This document shows, piece by piece, positions 30,834 through 36,687 of a stretch of DNA of 42,869 nucleotides (within the stretch, counting starts at the first letter, position 1; each line of letters opens with the position of its first letter). The stretch spans positions 1-42,869 of the forward strand of contig NZ_CAMDRA010000007.1 in the NCBI RefSeq assembly GCF_945906275.1, written 5' to 3'. The position numbers and the translations under genes are program-made. Below the pieces are notes generated by a model that ran no database searches, was not told where the DNA came from, and saw only the letters and a list, made by a program, of their open reading frames with translations. Source of the DNA: Dongia mobilis (lineage in GTDB: Bacteria; Pseudomonadota; Alphaproteobacteria; Dongiales; Dongiaceae).

Positions 30834-31862
30834 CTATTCCTTTGGAGATAGGGTTTCGGCCTCGATCTTCGCCAGTCTTTCCCGCGCCCGGATGCGTTCG
30901 CGGTGGGCCGTATAGATGCCGGTCGCAATGATGACAGCGCCACCAATCCAGGTGGTGACCGCCGGCAGCATGTCGAACCAGGCATAGCCAATCGCCGTCG
31001 CCCACAGCAGCTGCAGATAGATGAAGGGTGCGATGACCGAGGCCGAGGCATAGGAGAAGGCGCGGATCACCAGCGTATGGGCGAGCCCACCGGAGAGTCC
31101 CAAGGCCGCCAGCAGCAGCCACTGGTTGAAACTGGGTGCTTGCCAGAGGAACGGCATGAAGCAGCTCAACACCAGGCAACCCACCAGCGCCGCGTAGAAC
31201 AGCGACGTGGCGTTGCCGTCATGGCGCGCCACGACCCGGGTCAGCACATTGTAGCTGGCCCCGGTCGAAGCGGAGAGCAACGGCAGCAGGATCGCCAGAT
31301 GCACCATGCCGAAACCGGGCCGGATGACGATGAGGACGCCGATGAAGCCGATTGCGACCGCGGCCCAGCGCCGGATGCCGACACGTTCGCGCAGGAAAAA
31401 GTAGGAGAGGATCGTGATGACCAGCGGCTCGACGAAGGCCACCGCCGTGGCGGACGCCAGATCGACATAGCTCACCGCCAGGAAGAACAGCAATGTCGTC
31501 GCCAGCATGAGGAGCGAGCGCAGAAACTGGAGACCGGGCTTGCGCGCCCGCAGCATGTCGCGCCAGGGCTGGGTCCAGCGCGACGGGGTTGAGACCTGAG
31601 GTGCTGTCACCGCCGGCTCGAAGCGAGCTGCGACACCGGCATAGAGGATGGCAAAGACCAGGTGGAAGACATAGCGGCCCCAGGCCACTTCCATCACCGG
31701 CATGCCCTCGGCACTGAGATGCTTGACGATGGCATTGAAGAAGGAAAAGACGAAGCCAGCCGCCACCAGACACAGAATGCCGAACAGTGGCCGGTCGCCG
31801 GCGATCTTGCGCTCGCGGGCCGAGAGCGCCTTCACCGGCTCGACGGCGAGCGGGTCAGACAT
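30834..31862 (-). CDS. DMT-superfamily (EamA) transporter
   Basis: Inner-membrane carrier of 342 aa with about ten hydrophobic segments in two EamA repeats (LFGILCLVAAGFVFSFFNAIVKHLS begins the first; LLPLLSASTGASYNVLTRVVA the second). DLASATAVAFVEPLVITILSYFFLRERVGIRRW is a typical end of the first repeat. The cytosolic tail is charged (AHRERIRARERLAKIEAETL). Its start overlaps the antiporter stop by 8 bases, so the two are co-transcribed. Substrates of the family include amino acids, purines and S-adenosylmethionine; none can be assigned here. Confidence 0.88.
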   Translation of the reverse strand: MSDPLAVEPVKALSARERKIAGDRPLFGILCLVAAGFVFSFFNAIVKHLSAEGMPVMEVAWGRYVFHLVFAILYAGVAARFEPAVTAPQVSTPSRWTQPWRDMLRARKPGLQFLRSLLMLATTLLFFLAVSYVDLASATAVAFVEPLVITILSYFFLRERVGIRRWAAVAIGFIGVLIVIRPGFGMVHLAILLPLLSASTGASYNVLTRVVARHDGNATSLFYAALVGCLVLSCFMPFLWQAPSFNQWLLLAALGLSGGLAHTLVIRAFSYASASVIAPFIYLQLLWATAIGYAWFDMLPAVTTWIGGAVIIATGIYTAHRERIRARERLAKIEAETLSPKE

Positions 31863-34335
31863 GGTTGAGGCGCTCCTTGGCGACCTGCTCGATGCGCGCT
31901 TTCAATCCGGCGTCCTGGCCGAGCAGGGCATGGAAGTCGCGCGCCTTCAGCTCGAGCAGCTTGCAGAAGCCGAGCGCCACCACGTCGGCGTTGCGCGGAT
32001 GGCCGGTGAGCATCGCCAACTCGCCGAAGAAATCTCCGCTGCCCAGTTCGACGCTGGGCTCGACCATGACGCGGACGGCGCCGGAGGCCACGAAATACAT
32101 GGCGTCACCCTTGTCGCCGCGGCGCACCACCTTGGATTCCGGCAGCACCAATTGCGGCGCCAGCAACTGGGCGATGGATTGCTGCCGCTTGATGTCGAGA
32201 TCGCGGAAGATCGGCACGCGGCTCACCAGATCGATGGCGGAAAGTTCGGGATCGAGCTTGCAGCGCTTGTCCAGCCCGGTCCAATGGCGTTCCAGCTCGG
32301 CCGTCAGTTCGCGCTCGACCTCGCCGCTCACCACCAGATTGGCGGCAAGCGACTGATAGGCGGCACTTTCCCGCTGGCGGGCGATGCGCCCCAGATACTG
32401 CCGTTGCAGGGCCGCCGCATAGGCCGGGTATTGCAGCTTCAGGGCGAGGAGCGATTCCTCGACCGCCTCGATGCGCCGCGAGGTGAGCTTGATGATCTCG
32501 ACCGACGGCTCCTCGCCGATCAGGGGCTGCAGCCGGTCGCGGCTGAACGGCACCAAGCCGGCCAGCACCTGGCGCTGGGCCATGAGGAATTCAAACCGGT
32601 CGGCCAACGCGTCGGTCAACAGCCGCTCAAAGCGCGTGGTCCGCTGCAGCCACAGGGCAAAGCGGAAGGATTGGGAAAAGCCCAGCCCGCGTTCGGCAGC
32701 GGCGACATAGCCGCGGCGTCCGGACCCGCGCACCGCTTCGCGCACATGCTGAGCTTCGCGCAACAGCAGTTCGGCAATGCGCCGGTCGACAATGCGGCCG
32801 TTGAGGAGCGCAAAGCAGCGCTCCACTTCATGCGCCGCGGCGACGGTCAGCCCGACCTTGACCATCTCGTCGGCCATCAGCTCGACACCCCGATGGGAGC
32901 GGGCACGCGCCACGGCCAGGCGCGCTTCAAGACTTGAGAGGGCGGCGTCGGCTATTTCGCGGTCGATCCCCTCGGCCCGCGCGATCTCGGACAGATCGGT
33001 CGCAACATCGCCCAGCGTCATCAGCTTGGCGCGGTCACGCACGCCGCGCGCCACCGGGTTGAGGCGGTTGAGGCGAAAGAAACCGACCAGCGGCCGCAGG
33101 GTGATGCCATTGATGAACAGGGTCAGCAGCACGAAGCCGGTGACCGAGGTGGCGATGAAATCGCGCATCGGCGCCGGGACGGCGGTGTTCTCGATGACAG
33201 CCAACGCCAGGGCCAGCGACACAGCACCCCGCAGGCCGCCCCAGACGATCACGGTCTTGATGCGGTTGTTGATCCGCTGCATGAGGCCGGCGCGGGTGAG
33301 GAGCGGCAGCAGCAGATAGACGGTGACGCCACGCGCCGCAAGTGTCGCCAGATAGACCAGCAGGATGAAGCCGAATTCAAGCAGGCTGGTGCCCTCCATG
33401 ATGCGCGGCACGAACATGGCCGCGAGCAGGAAGATCAGCGAATTGGCCCAGAAGCCGAGCTGGCCCCAGACACCTTCCATCTGTTCGAAGGTATGCGGCA
33501 GCATGCGGATCTTGCCGGTCGAGCCCAGCACCAGGCCGGCCACCACGCAGGAAACGACACCGGAAACATGGAAGTAATGCTCCGGTACGACGAAGCTCAA
33601 GTAAGCCAGGGCGATGGTGACGGTGATCTCCGCTTTCGGCCAGCCGCCGAGGAACGGGAACAAGGCACAGGCCGCGCGCGCCATGATGAAACCGGCAAGG
33701 GCGCCCCCGATGAAGCTCACCAGGAAGCGAAACACCGTATCGCCGATGCTGCCGTCGCCACCGCTCAGCAGCATCTCCAGGAGCAGGGCGAAGAGGGCGA
33801 TGGCGGCTGCGTCATTGAACAGGCTCTCGCCTTCGACCAGGGTGGTGAGGCGCTTCGGCACACCCACTTCGCGGAAAATGCCGACGACCGCGGCCGGGTC
33901 GGTGGTGGCGACGATCGAGCCCAGCAGCAGGCAGGTGATGAGGCCGAAGGGCGAGGCCGCTGCCAGGGCAAAGCCGACGGCCAGCGCGCAGATCACCACC
34001 GCCACGACCGCCATGGTGAGGACAGGTGCGAGATCATCAAGCAGGCGCCGCACGTCGATGGCGAGCGCCACTTCGAACAGCAAGGTTGGCAGGAAGATGA
34101 GGATGAAGGCCTCGGATGAGATCTCGACGCTGGCCAGGGCATCGATGATGTCATGCAGCATCGGCGACGGGACGGCGAGGTCGGGGCGCAGAGACACCAC
34201 CGCCCCCAGGATGAATCCGATGGCCGCCAGCAGCACCGAGTAGGGCAGGCGCAGTTTCGCCGCCAGCGGCGGCAACAGGCTCATCAAGGCGAGCAGGCTG
34301 ACAAGGCCGAATACCACGAGGCCGGTTGTAGTCAT
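31855..34335 (-). CDS. CPA1-type Na+/H+ antiporter with C-terminal cyclic-nucleotide-binding domain
   Basis: An 826-aa membrane protein. Residues about 1-415 are a CPA1 exchanger with about twelve membrane segments; ATTDPAAVVGIF (143-154) and VEGESLFNDAAAIALF (168-183, with the ion-binding Asn-Asp) are exchanger signatures, and NRIKTVIVWGGLRGAVSLALAL is the later conserved block. Residues about 420-690 are a long helical, arginine-rich cytosolic region. The final ~130 residues are a cyclic-nucleotide-binding domain, with the phosphate cassette FFGELAMLTGHPRNADV including the cassette Glu and Arg. This domain order resembles SOS1-like exchangers. It suggests cAMP- or cGMP-gated ion exchange; no cyclase is nearby. 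MTTTGLV at 34335 is chosen because the longer frame is non-membrane and runs toward the divergent coaE, though the ribosome site is weak. Confidence 0.88.
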   Translation of the reverse strand: MTTTGLVVFGLVSLLALMSLLPPLAAKLRLPYSVLLAAIGFILGAVVSLRPDLAVPSPMLHDIIDALASVEISSEAFILIFLPTLLFEVALAIDVRRLLDDLAPVLTMAVVAVVICALAVGFALAAASPFGLITCLLLGSIVATTDPAAVVGIFREVGVPKRLTTLVEGESLFNDAAAIALFALLLEMLLSGGDGSIGDTVFRFLVSFIGGALAGFIMARAACALFPFLGGWPKAEITVTIALAYLSFVVPEHYFHVSGVVSCVVAGLVLGSTGKIRMLPHTFEQMEGVWGQLGFWANSLIFLLAAMFVPRIMEGTSLLEFGFILLVYLATLAARGVTVYLLLPLLTRAGLMQRINNRIKTVIVWGGLRGAVSLALALAVIENTAVPAPMRDFIATSVTGFVLLTLFINGITLRPLVGFFRLNRLNPVARGVRDRAKLMTLGDVATDLSEIARAEGIDREIADAALSSLEARLAVARARSHRGVELMADEMVKVGLTVAAAHEVERCFALLNGRIVDRRIAELLLREAQHVREAVRGSGRRGYVAAAERGLGFSQSFRFALWLQRTTRFERLLTDALADRFEFLMAQRQVLAGLVPFSRDRLQPLIGEEPSVEIIKLTSRRIEAVEESLLALKLQYPAYAAALQRQYLGRIARQRESAAYQSLAANLVVSGEVERELTAELERHWTGLDKRCKLDPELSAIDLVSRVPIFRDLDIKRQQSIAQLLAPQLVLPESKVVRRGDKGDAMYFVASGAVRVMVEPSVELGSGDFFGELAMLTGHPRNADVVALGFCKLLELKARDFHALLGQDAGLKARIEQVAKERLNHV

Positions 34336-34489
34336 GAAATCGGGGCTGCCTTCAGGCGGGAAACCAATCTGTCCCGGTCTTATAGCCCATGACCCGGGCC
34401 CGGGTCCAAAGCCGTTCCTGGGGTTTTGTGATGCCGGCCACATCAAATCCCCTGCCCCGCTTGACAAGAATCAGCGCCGGCCCCAATCG

Positions 34490-35083
34490 ATGGACATGCG
34501 CATCCTGGGTCTCACCGGTTCCATCGGCATGGGGAAATCAACCGCGGCCCGGATGCTGCGTGCCCTGGGCTTGGCCGTCCATGACGCCGATGCCGCCGTC
34601 CACCGGTTGCTGGCCAAGGACGGCCGGGCGGTGGCTGCCGTCGACGCGGCCTTCCCCGGCGTGGTTGCCCAGGGTGCTGTCGATCGCAAGGCATTGGGCG
34701 CCAAGGTGTTTGGCCAACCGGCGGAAATGAAACGGCTGGAGGCCATCCTTCACCCGTTGGTGCGGGATGAGGAACGGCGCTTCCTGCAACGCTGCCGTCG
34801 TGCGCGGCGAGACGTCGCGGTGCTCGATATACCGTTGCTGTTCGAGACCGGCGGCGAAAAACGCTGCGATGGCGTGGTCGTGGTGACGGCGCCACAATTC
34901 CTCCAAAGTCAGCGCGTGTTGAAACGCCAGGGCATGACGCCAGCGCGCTTTCGCCAGATTCTCGGCGCCCAGATGCCGGACCGGGAAAAACGGCGCCGGG
35001 CGGATTGGGTGGTCGAAACCGGCCTTGGCCGTCGACCGACCCTGGCTGCCCTGGCGCGGGTTGTGCAGACTCTAAGGAAATGA
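34490..35083 (+). CDS. coaE: Dephospho-CoA kinase CoaE
   Basis: Phosphorylates dephospho-CoA, the last step of CoA synthesis. It is 197 aa, with P-loop GLTGSIGMGKSTAARMLR at the N-terminus, DADAAVHRLLA and FPGVVAQGAVDRKALG as substrate blocks, LEAILHPLVRDEE, and LDIPLLFETGGEKRCDGVVVV as the core strand. The start at 34490 has only a weak ribosome site; ATG 34496 (MRILGLTGS) is equally plausible. Divergent from the antiporter and followed by the glutamate racemase-like gene after 43 bases. The pairing of coaE with dnaQ is widespread in alphaproteobacteria. Confidence 0.94.
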   Translation: MDMRILGLTGSIGMGKSTAARMLRALGLAVHDADAAVHRLLAKDGRAVAAVDAAFPGVVAQGAVDRKALGAKVFGQPAEMKRLEAILHPLVRDEERRFLQRCRRARRDVAVLDIPLLFETGGEKRCDGVVVVTAPQFLQSQRVLKRQGMTPARFRQILGAQMPDREKRRRADWVVETGLGRRPTLAALARVVQTLRK

Positions 35084-35126
35084 TCGAGAATTTCGATCAA
35101 ATATCGGAGGTTGATCGCTAAAATCG

Positions 35127-36002
35127 ATGATTGGCGTGTTTGATTCCGGCCATGGCGGCCTCACCATCCTTTCCGCCCTGCAGCAGCGGCTGCCGCGCCA
35201 GGGCTTCATCTATCTGGGCGACCACGCCAACGCCCCCTATGGCCAACGCTCGCCAGACGAGATCTACGCCCTGACCCGGCAGAATGTGGCAACCCTGTTC
35301 GGCCTGGGCTGCACCCTGGTGATCCTCGCCTGCAACACGGCCGCCGCCGTCGCCTTGCGGCGCCTGCAGCAGGAATGGCTGCCGCAGCATTTTCCGCATC
35401 ACCGCTGTCTCGGCGTCCTTGTCCCAATGATCGAGGAGATCGCGCACAATCCCTGGCATGCAGTGGCGAGCCAGAGCGATTGGGACCGGCAGCCGGAAAC
35501 TTTGGGCGTGTTCGCCACCCGCGCCACGGTGGCGAGCGGCGCCTATGTCCATGAAGTGGCAAAGCGCGCACCGCGCCTGCGGGTATTCCAGCAGGCCTGC
35601 CCCGATCTTGCCGGGATGATCGAAGCCGGCGCCGAAGATGATGTCCTGGCGCCGATGATCGCCCGCTATGTTGCTGAGTTGCAGGCGCAGTTGGGCGATG
35701 CAATCCTCGACAGCGTGGTGCTTGGCTGCACGCACTATCCGCTGATCGAGCATCTGTTCCGCGCCGCCTTGCCCGAGAACACGCGCTTGGTCTCGCAGCC
35801 ACAGCGTACCGCCGACTCGCTCACCGCCTATCTCTTCCGCCATCCGGAGATGAAGCGCTTCGGTGCGCTGCCGGCGGAGATCCGCGCCTATACGACCGGT
35901 AATGCGGATCAGGTGACGATGCTTGCCAGCCGCTATTTCTCGCGGCATCTTCGCTTCCAGCCGCTGCCCGCACATTCCGACCGGATGCACCATCATGCGT
36001 GA
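35127..36002 (+). CDS. murI: Glutamate racemase-family protein (MurI-like)
   Basis: Predicted to make D-glutamate for peptidoglycan. The protein is 291 aa. IGVFDSGHGGLTIL is the opening substrate loop, C69 in ILACNTAAAVALR and C201 in VVLGCTHYPLIEHL are the two catalytic cysteines, and GDHANAPYGQRS is the usual GD-NAPYG block. An extra segment near NPWHAVASQSDWDRQPE is longer than in many MurI proteins. The ATG is the only reasonable start (an in-frame TGA lies at 35112), but its nearest GGAGG is 16 bases away, suggesting weak initiation. It overlaps dnaQ by 8 bases. A related Asp/Glu racemase role is possible. Confidence 0.85.
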   Translation: MIGVFDSGHGGLTILSALQQRLPRQGFIYLGDHANAPYGQRSPDEIYALTRQNVATLFGLGCTLVILACNTAAAVALRRLQQEWLPQHFPHHRCLGVLVPMIEEIAHNPWHAVASQSDWDRQPETLGVFATRATVASGAYVHEVAKRAPRLRVFQQACPDLAGMIEAGAEDDVLAPMIARYVAELQAQLGDAILDSVVLGCTHYPLIEHLFRAALPENTRLVSQPQRTADSLTAYLFRHPEMKRFGALPAEIRAYTTGNADQVTMLASRYFSRHLRFQPLPAHSDRMHHHA

Positions 36003-36687
36003 GATCGTCCTCGACACCGAAACCACCGGCTTTGATCCGGTGACCGGCGACCGCCTGGCCGAAATCGGCTGCATCGAGCTCGAAAACCACATTCCGACGG
36101 GCCGCAACTTTCACCGTTACATCAATCCGGAGCGCGAGATGCCGGATGCGGCCTTCCGCATCCACGGCCTCTCCACCGCCTTCCTCGCCGACAAGCCGAC
36201 CTTCGCGACCGTGGCTGATGAGTTCCTGGCCTTCGTCGCCGAGGACCCGCTGGTCATCCACAATGCCGAATTCGACATGAAGTTCATCAACTTCGAACTG
36301 GAGAAGTCGGGCAAGCGCGCGATCCCGTTCCAGCGCGCGATCGATACGGTCAAGATGGCGCGCACGAAGTTCCCGGGCTCGCCGGCTTCGCTGGATGCGC
36401 TGTGCAAGCGCTTCAACATCGACAATTCGAACCGCACCCTCCATGGCGCGCTCTTGGATGCGCAGCTCCTGGCCGATGTCTATCTGGAATTGCTGGGTGG
36501 CCGCCAGACGGGCCTCACCCTTGCCGCCGACGATGCCGGCACCAGTGACATGAACTTCGCCAGGCGTGCCGCACCCGCCTCAAGCCGCCCGGTGCGGGAG
36601 CCACGCCTGTTCGCTCCCACCCCGGAAGAGCTCGAAGCCCATGCCGCGTTCATCGCCAAGTTCAAGGATCCGGTCTGGCTGCAATAG
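35995..36687 (+). CDS. dnaQ: DNA polymerase III epsilon subunit (3'-5' proofreading exonuclease) DnaQ
   Basis: Proofreading subunit of the replicative polymerase, 230 aa. The DEDDh active site is visible: D7 and E9 in VLDTETTGFD, D94 in IHNAEFDMKF, H150 in NRTLHGALLDAQ and D155. The linker after residue 175 (DDAGTSDMNFARRA...) leads to a C-terminal tail for binding the alpha subunit. The ATG at 35995 lies inside the end of the preceding gene and begins the canonical MREIVLDTETTG; the longer frame is rejected. Confidence 0.95.
   Translation: MREIVLDTETTGFDPVTGDRLAEIGCIELENHIPTGRNFHRYINPEREMPDAAFRIHGLSTAFLADKPTFATVADEFLAFVAEDPLVIHNAEFDMKFINFELEKSGKRAIPFQRAIDTVKMARTKFPGSPASLDALCKRFNIDNSNRTLHGALLDAQLLADVYLELLGGRQTGLTLAADDAGTSDMNFARRAAPASSRPVREPRLFAPTPEELEAHAAFIAKFKDPVWLQ

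What the first reader, a model, noticed from the sequence alone, without database searches (positions are those of the whole stretch)
31855..34335. Na+/H+ antiporter fused to a cyclic-nucleotide-binding domain
A CPA1 exchanger with a long helical linker and a complete phosphate cassette (FFGELAMLTGHPRNADV) suggests direct control of ion exchange by cAMP or cGMP. Comparable arrangements are known in plant SOS1 and sperm exchangers, but bacterial ones are little studied. The linked DMT carrier could be part of the same response.
Basis: partly seen in the sequence, partly recalled or inferred. Interest (0 to 1): 0.5.

Follow-up and report, generated by a model that had tools for sequence, protein, structure and literature searches.

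The report
Bacterial cAMP-sensing SOS1-type sodium/proton exchanger
A bacterium related to Dongia carries a sodium/proton exchanger built, domain for domain, like the plant salt-tolerance protein SOS1 and the sperm exchanger SLC9C1, with an intact predicted cyclic-nucleotide pocket and no voltage sensor, an arrangement a published review said bacteria do not have.

Summary
Window 31855-34335 (-) encodes an 826-aa protein: a CPA1 Na+/H+ exchanger, a ~260-aa helical domain and a C-terminal cyclic-nucleotide-binding domain (CNBD). It is not a loose fusion. A profile of 41 bacterial members aligns with rice SOS1 in one unbroken stretch from membrane domain to CNBD, and with sea-urchin SLC9C1 in two stretches, the gap falling where SLC9C1 carries its voltage sensor. 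The helical domain modelled alone has SOS1 and SLC9C1 as its top PDB matches. All 41 members keep the ribose Glu, the phosphate Arg and a C-helix Arg that probably matches one used by SLC9C1; rice SOS1 has lost the first two. Best reading: a cAMP/cGMP-gated, voltage-independent Na+/H+ (or K+/H+) exchanger; architecture shown, binding and gating inferred. A 2020 review states that this domain combination is "not present in bacteria"; this family contradicts it. The neighbouring DMT carrier is linked only within the window's own family. No binding or transport has been measured.

The parts
31855..34335 (-). Na+/H+ exchanger with helical domain and CNBD, 826 aa, one ORF
33070..34335 (-). Membrane exchanger domain, residues 1-422; ion-site residues T145 D146, N174 D175, R369
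   Evidence: Pfam 16-417; the five residues invariant in 41 of 41; their role is recalled from the NHE/NhaP families
32242..33018 (-). Helical cytoplasmic domain, residues 440-698, counterpart of SOS1 alpha-CTD and SLC9C1 coupling helices
   Evidence: against:
31855..32232 (-). CNBD, residues 702-826 and stop codon, with phosphate cassette 769-785 and C-helix Arg822
31981..32031 (-). Phosphate-binding cassette FFGELAMLTGHPRNADV: E772 (ribose), R781 (phosphate), N782
   Evidence: G771, E772, R781 invariant in 41 of 41; N782 in 22 of 41
30834..31862 (-). EamA/DMT transporter, overlaps the exchanger stop by 8 bp; probable co-transcription (inferred), function not tied

Best explanation
The gene encodes a bacterial member of the SOS1/SLC9C branch of CPA1 exchangers. 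SHOWN by comparison: an exchanger domain with the Asn-Asp ion site and conserved Arg, a helical domain of SOS1 alpha-CTD kind, and a C-terminal CNBD with a complete nucleotide cassette; no voltage sensor, and none of the tail that inhibits SOS1. INFERRED: it works as a homodimer (as SOS1 and SLC9C1 do); the helical domain lies under the membrane and couples the CNBD to the exchanger; cAMP (or cGMP) made by the cell's class III cyclases binds the pocket, closes the C-helix (Arg822) over the base and shifts the helical domain, changing exchange rate, most likely relieving inhibition as in SLC9C1. It would link cAMP state to Na+ (or K+) export and cytoplasmic pH without transcription.
For: Profile of 41 members: OsSOS1 matched in one stretch 13-811 (E 7.8e-96), SpSLC9C1 in two, 19-532 and 609-820 (E about 2e-95 overall, second stretch about 5e-5), NHE1 5e-49. 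Whole model: VIA Z 48.3 to AtSOS1 over 771 residues, Z 48.0 to SLC9C1 over 652. Helical domain alone: VIA rows 1-31 are all SLC9C1 (Z 15.5-17.8) or SOS1 (Z 15.1-15.2), the next row 8.9. Gly771, Glu772, Arg781 and Arg822 invariant in 41 of 41, Arg822 standing in an otherwise variable helix. SLC9C1 cassette VIGEMGVLTKKPRNATV against bacterial PRNADV; in SLC9C1 R1053 is needed for the cAMP effect (PMC6052114, passage), and N1054 and R1097 are listed as nucleotide contacts (PMC10620091, legend passage). 53 of 53 carriers found by single-sequence search have a class III cyclase. The two carriers found without one have a damaged cassette (G556) or no CNBD (G212).
Against: No binding or transport data. 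The cyclase link is confounded: all 53 carriers have genomes of about 2.0 Mb or more, while 16 of the 20 listed genomes without cyclase are under 2 Mb (80 more are not listed). Two relatives with the same Glu-to-Gln change as G556 do have one weak cyclase match each (G515, G518). Six of seven members read from one genus outside the class lost the cassette Arg though their genomes hold 6-10 cyclase matches each. Outside the membrane domain the sequence signal is weak: a helical-domain-only profile finds nothing in the PDB at E<=1, and the SLC9C1 pieces alone do not clearly beat shuffles. Foldseek with the helical domain alone gives no E<=0.001. Residue 784 is Asp in 35 of 41, where SLC9C1 has Thr. 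The R822-R1097 pairing is extrapolated by two residues.
Confidence: 0.72

Rival explanations
1. The CNBD is a structural, non-binding domain as in plant SOS1: it holds the dimer and helical domain together and regulates by contact, not by ligand.
For: SOS1 is a close relative and its domain is reported unable to bind (PMC10372031 passages). 11 of 22 further loci from the phylum draw have a changed cassette.
Against: Glu772, Arg781 and Arg822 are invariant in 41 of 41, which a pure scaffold would not need; in OsSOS1 the Glu and Arg positions are Leu and Tyr.
Confidence: 0.14
2. The pocket binds another small molecule (another cyclic nucleotide or metabolite), not 3',5'-cAMP or cGMP.
For: Asp784 in 35 of 41, and Val, Thr or Ser in place of Asn782 in part of the family, differ from SLC9C1.
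Against: Ribose Glu, phosphate Arg and a C-helix Arg are all kept; SLC9C1 with a PRNA motif was solved with cAMP and with cGMP.
Confidence: 0.1
3. The fusion is an independent bacterial domain shuffle that only resembles SOS1/SLC9C1.
For: CNBDs do join exchangers independently: CPA2/YbaL-like exchangers with a CNBD exist in related genomes. Helical-domain sequence similarity alone is weak.
Against: One-stretch alignment through all three domains; the OsSOS1 helical domain scores 13.6 bits and 0 of 3000 shuffles reach it (2405 were reported with a score); the helical domain alone retrieves SOS1/SLC9C1 as the nine best Foldseek rows among 350,542 chains and as the first 31 entries by VIA.
Confidence: 0.04

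Closest known systems
Plant SOS1 (NHX7), e.g. AtSOS1 7y3e, OsSOS1 8iwo
   Same: Same three domains in the same order; OsSOS1 aligns in one stretch, profile 13-811; no voltage sensor.
   Different: OsSOS1 lacks the cassette Glu and Arg (TLGLYEVLIGKPYICDM). AtSOS1 is reported unable to bind cyclic nucleotides and to carry a beta-CTD and an autoinhibitory tail, with activation by phosphorylation (PMC10372031, start of abstract and passages). The bacterial protein ends two residues after the C-helix.
Sperm SLC9C1 (sNHE), e.g. 8pcz, 8xqa
   Same: Exchanger, helical domain, CNBD; cassette PRNATV against PRNADV; Glu, Arg, Asn and probably the C-helix Arg shared.
   Different: SLC9C1 has a four-helix voltage sensor within the helical domain and a further C-terminal helix and beta-roll (PMC10620092, passages); the bacterial protein has neither.
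Models TIGR00831 (a_cpa1) and TIGR00840 (b_cpa1) of CPA1 exchangers
   Same: Best NCBIfam matches of the exchanger domain.
   Different: Scores 217.1 and 132.9 are under the cut-offs 279.6 and 251.25.
MlotiK1 and SthK, bacterial cyclic-nucleotide-gated channels
   Same: CNBD related: MlotiK1 E 3e-15 by single sequence, SthK by the profile.
   Different: The effector is a K+ channel, not an exchanger.

Membership tests
SOS1/SLC9C branch of CPA1 exchangers | Exchanger domain closest to SOS1/SLC9C1 rather than to other NHEs | tested here: met
   phmmer bits SLC9C1 168, AtSOS1 155, NHE1 96; two CNBD-free CPA1 controls give 82/64/73 and 89/73/76 for the same three
SOS1/SLC9C branch of CPA1 exchangers | Helical domain between exchanger and CNBD of SOS1 alpha-CTD fold | tested here: met
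   sequence support moderate, profile-only search negative
SOS1/SLC9C branch of CPA1 exchangers | C-terminal CNBD | tested here: met
   41 of 41 members
Plant SOS1 proper | beta-CTD and autoinhibitory tail | tested here: not met
   Protein ends at residue 826, two residues after the C-helix
SLC9C1 proper | Voltage-sensor domain with S4 | tested here: not met
   Profile 532 and 609 flank the SLC9C1 stretch that is missing; the model has one continuous helical domain there
cNMP-responsive CNBD | Gly-Glu and Arg of the phosphate cassette | tested here: met
   41 of 41
cNMP-responsive CNBD | C-helix purine contact | tested here: inconclusive
   Arg822 invariant in 41 of 41; its pairing with SLC9C1 R1097 is extrapolated
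cNMP-responsive CNBD | Measured binding and response to nucleotide | not testable with these tools
   Needs purified protein
CPA1 Na+/H+ exchanger | Electroneutral Na+/H+ exchange activity | not testable with these tools
   Ion-site residues conserved; ion not known
TIGR00831 a_cpa1 | Score over the curated cut-off | tested here: not met
   217.1 against 279.6 bits

The most novel reading that the evidence does not exclude
Cyclic-nucleotide-gated Na+/H+ exchange is older than, or was passed between, bacteria and eukaryotes: an exchanger-helical domain-CNBD protein with a working cAMP pocket was the common scaffold; plants kept it as SOS1 and lost ligand binding in favour of phosphorylation, and animals inserted a voltage sensor into its helical domain to make SLC9C1. 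The bacterial family is the living form nearest the unmodified scaffold.
Probability: 0.45. Interest if true: 0.75.

Novelty: new variant of a known kind. Interest (0 to 1): 0.56.

Why it matters
A 2020 review of plant antiporters (PMC7573149, passages) says the exchanger+CNBD combination is "not present in bacteria" and was first formed in algae; this family contradicts that. SLC9C1 papers call the protein a chimera of exchanger and ion-channel parts (PMC6052114 and PMC10620091, passages); here the exchanger-CNBD part exists without the voltage sensor. A smaller bacterial version without sensor or inhibitory tail would let one ask directly how a CNBD drives an exchanger, and would add a direct ion-transport target of cAMP in bacteria. 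Caveat: plasmid records already carry such genes as "cation:proton antiporter", and most subscription papers were not searchable.

Tried and rejected
Helical-domain-only profile against PDB sequences: no hit at E<=1. The same profile against SLC9C1 pieces: 9.7 bits with 1 shuffle reaching it, and 2.6 bits with 20 reaching it, so sequence alone does not prove SLC9C1 linker homology; structure carries that claim. hhalign to the OsSOS1 helical domain: E 5.7e-4 but probability only 30%.

Conserved neighbourhood: 59 neighbour ORFs (the longest on each side) from 30 class-level loci show no recurrent partner (most frequent Pfam: MFS_1 in 4 of 59). A cyclase partner gene as a rule was therefore rejected. 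Class I adenylate cyclase in 20 carriers: 0 of 20.

Cyclase co-occurrence: Fisher p 1e-11 for 53 of 53 against 136 of 236, rejected as strong evidence because of genome size. By profile search 54 of 289 genomes match at 1e-80; 53 of these 54 have a cyclase, the exception being G212.

A first idea that loss of the cassette Arg goes with loss of the C-helix Arg was rejected: in the six Arg-less members of one genus the profile match merely stops early, and the chain runs on with an Arg nearby.

Tree: iqtree2 stopped on a thread setting and then timed out; FastTree was used instead. SOS1+SLC9C1 support 1.0; bacterial family plus these two against four other bacterial exchangers 0.996 (full) and 0.984 (membrane domain); the order of the two bacterial clades and the eukaryotes is unresolved (0.36, 0.33). 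Only two eukaryotic sequences and four outgroups, so direction of descent is open.

Other phyla were not sampled: the 'of' option takes only genome handles, and the single genome-contig scan uses short peptides of the query.

Rows dropped: A1 holds P0001 plus 40 of 49 full-length translations; dropped were two copies of the window protein (L001, L027), five duplicates (L019, L020, L021, L022, L024), L082 (near-copy of L081) and L063 (in-frame stop). L016, L043 and L044, partial, were skipped before that. Of the 53 class genomes only the best 30 came with sequence, so A1 leans to nearer relatives, and the cassettes of most of the other 23 were not read. In some searches the row for L095 was mixed with another frame of the same locus; its cassette is taken. 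In one search the C-helix column was set wrongly; its output is not used.
Full report
WHAT IS THERE. The minus-strand frame 34335-31855 encodes 826 residues. Pfam finds a Na_H_Exchanger domain at 16-417 and a cNMP_binding domain at 733-807. Between them lie about 260 residues that an AlphaFold2 model of the whole chain (mean pLDDT 84.7, pTM 0.73) shows as long helices, followed by a beta-roll and two short helices that end at the C-terminus. The window lies in a genome of 3.7 Mb; the nearest relatives with a genus name are Dongia records (91% and 70% identical proteins).

HOW WIDESPREAD. All 17 genomes of the family searched hold the protein; in one, G015, it is split over two contigs. In a draw of 289 genomes of the class, 53 have a match at E<=1e-60; in 49 of the 53 one match runs from residue 13 or earlier to residue 804 or later, the others being shorter or split. 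With a 41-row profile 54 match at 1e-80. In a draw of 299 genomes of the phylum, 24 match at 1e-80; the 13 outside the class all belong to one family. On plasmids, 77 records hold a place covering at least 80% of the query, the best in Azospirillum; where annotated, those listed read "cation:proton antiporter". Other phyla were not sampled.

WHAT IT IS RELATED TO. A single-sequence search of the PDB ranks sperm SLC9C1 (168 bits) and plant SOS1 (155) far above NHE1 (96). Two CNBD-free bacterial CPA1 proteins used as controls give 82/64/73 and 89/73/76 bits for SLC9C1/AtSOS1/NHE1, so the gap is particular to this family. The 41-member profile aligns OsSOS1 from 13 to 811 without a break (E 7.8e-96) and AtSOS1 from 13 to 755; SLC9C1 aligns at 19-532 and again at 609-820. 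The SLC9C1 residues in between (about 621-862) include S4 residue R803 of the voltage sensor (PMC10620091). The whole model aligns to AtSOS1 with VIA Z 48.3 over 771 residues and to SLC9C1 with Z 48.0; rmsd of 10-11 A over the full chains points to different domain placement, and NHE1, NHE3 and NhaP also reach Z 40-44 over the membrane domain alone. The helical domain modelled on its own (pLDDT 88.8) was compared with all PDB chains: the nine best Foldseek rows are SOS1 or SLC9C1 (best E 6.5e-3, probability 1.00; no row at E<=0.001), and by VIA the first 31 entries are SLC9C1 (Z 15.5-17.8) or SOS1 (15.1-15.2), the next 8.9. The best row matches SLC9C1 residues 572-947, spanning the sensor. Sequence support for the helical domain alone is modest: 13.6 bits for OsSOS1 with none of 3000 shuffles reaching it, but no hit in an open PDB search.

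THE POCKET. In 41 of 41 members Gly771, Glu772 and Arg781 are invariant, and so is Arg822 in a C-helix whose other positions vary. The SLC9C1 alignment ends at profile position 820 = SLC9C1 residue 1095; two ungapped residues on, Arg822 meets Arg1097, which the SLC9C1 paper lists as a C-helix nucleotide contact together with E1044, R1053 and N1054 (PMC10620091, legend passage). That pairing is an extrapolation of mine. N782 (22 of 41) matches N1054. R1053Q abolishes the cAMP-induced shift in SLC9C1 (PMC6052114, passage). In OsSOS1 the Glu and Arg positions read Leu and Tyr, and the AtSOS1 paper suggests that its domain cannot bind cyclic nucleotides (PMC10372031, passage). Among 22 further loci from the phylum draw (L085-L106; L107, a fragment, not counted) 11 keep Glu and Arg, 3 have Glu to Gln, 1 has Glu to Ala with Arg kept, 6 have lost the Arg, and 1 has lost both. 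The six Arg-less ones are of one genus, of whose members I read seven; their genomes hold 6-10 class III cyclase matches. So nucleotide sensing appears to have been lost more than once.

CYCLASES. The window's genome has 11 class III cyclase matches, two of them in one contig and frame length of 894 aa, probably one gene, and six CNBD matches, this protein included. All 53 class carriers have a class III cyclase, against 136 of the other 236. Genome size explains much of this. More telling, but only two cases: G556, without any class III cyclase match, carries a damaged cassette (MFGQLALLARMRRRTQV), and G212, also without one, carries a 704-aa version in which Pfam finds the exchanger but no CNBD. 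Against: G515 and G518, with the same Glu-to-Gln change, each have one weak cyclase match.

NEIGHBOURS. The DMT gene overlaps the stop codon, and a relative of it lies downstream of the exchanger in 12 of 15 other full-length loci of the family, but in none of 26 class-level loci (flanks of up to 1.5 kb). No neighbour family recurs across the class. The exchanger mostly stands alone.

HOW IT LIKELY WORKS. SOS1 is an electroneutral homodimer (PMC10372031, passages); in SLC9C1 cAMP binding is proposed to detach the CNBD from S4 and the coupling helices (PMC10620092, passages). With no sensor between CNBD and exchanger, I expect cyclic nucleotide alone to set activity. Whether it activates or inhibits, and whether Na+ or K+ is carried, cannot be told from sequence.

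WHAT IS IN PRINT. In nine answered searches no listed title or abstract start describes a bacterial member; I saw listings only (up to 20 rows, fewer than the hits in several), plus passages of 13 papers. PMC7573149 (passages) states that the combination is not present in bacteria. PMC6660944 (passages) places VSD acquisition in Metazoa and treats SOS1 as the sensor-less homologue, with a tree of eukaryotes. PMC5447177 (passages) reports SOS1-like CNBD antiporters in a halophilic protist. PMC9408914 and PMC6181914, on prokaryotic and all CPAs, hold none of the words cyclic, CNBD or SOS1 in the main text. Brett et al. 2005 is known to me by recall and by citation in PMC7573149, which credits it with a prokaryotic origin of SOS1; I did not see it.

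VERDICT. Observation confirmed; interpretation right in kind, stronger than stated for ancestry, unproven for ligand control, weak for the DMT gene. A new prokaryotic, sensor-less, pocket-intact variant of the SOS1/SLC9C kind.

Noticed in passing
L047:28-1947, L049:1453-3216 (-), L051:313-2049: A second, separate exchanger-CNBD fusion in genomes of the window's family: 579-640 aa CPA2 proteins nearest YbaL (E 7e-160 or better, under that model's cut-off) with a CNBD after a short linker; 3 of 3 scanned.
   Followed up: partly
L087:3-1475 (+), genome G382: The only class III cyclase match of this genome (with CHASE2) lies tail to tail with the exchanger, about 270 bp between the matched parts. 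Single case.
   Followed up: partly
L108:703-2817 (-), genome G212: Relative of 704 aa with exchanger and part of the helical domain but no CNBD, in a 1.5 Mb genome without class III cyclase match.
   Followed up: partly
L098-L102, L105 (one genus outside the class): Cassette Arg lost although 6-10 cyclase matches per genome remain; L103 of the same genus keeps it.
   Followed up: partly
L088, L089, L092: Cassette Glu replaced by Gln (FGQ) in three genera of one family, Arg kept.
   Followed up: partly
window 34481-36687 (+): coaE, a racemase-family gene (murI by recall) and a dnaQ-like gene (name by recall) run divergently from the exchanger; at least coaE stays there in five of six other genus loci.
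   Followed up: partly
L063: Otherwise full-length member with one in-frame TAA; left out of A1.
   Followed up: no
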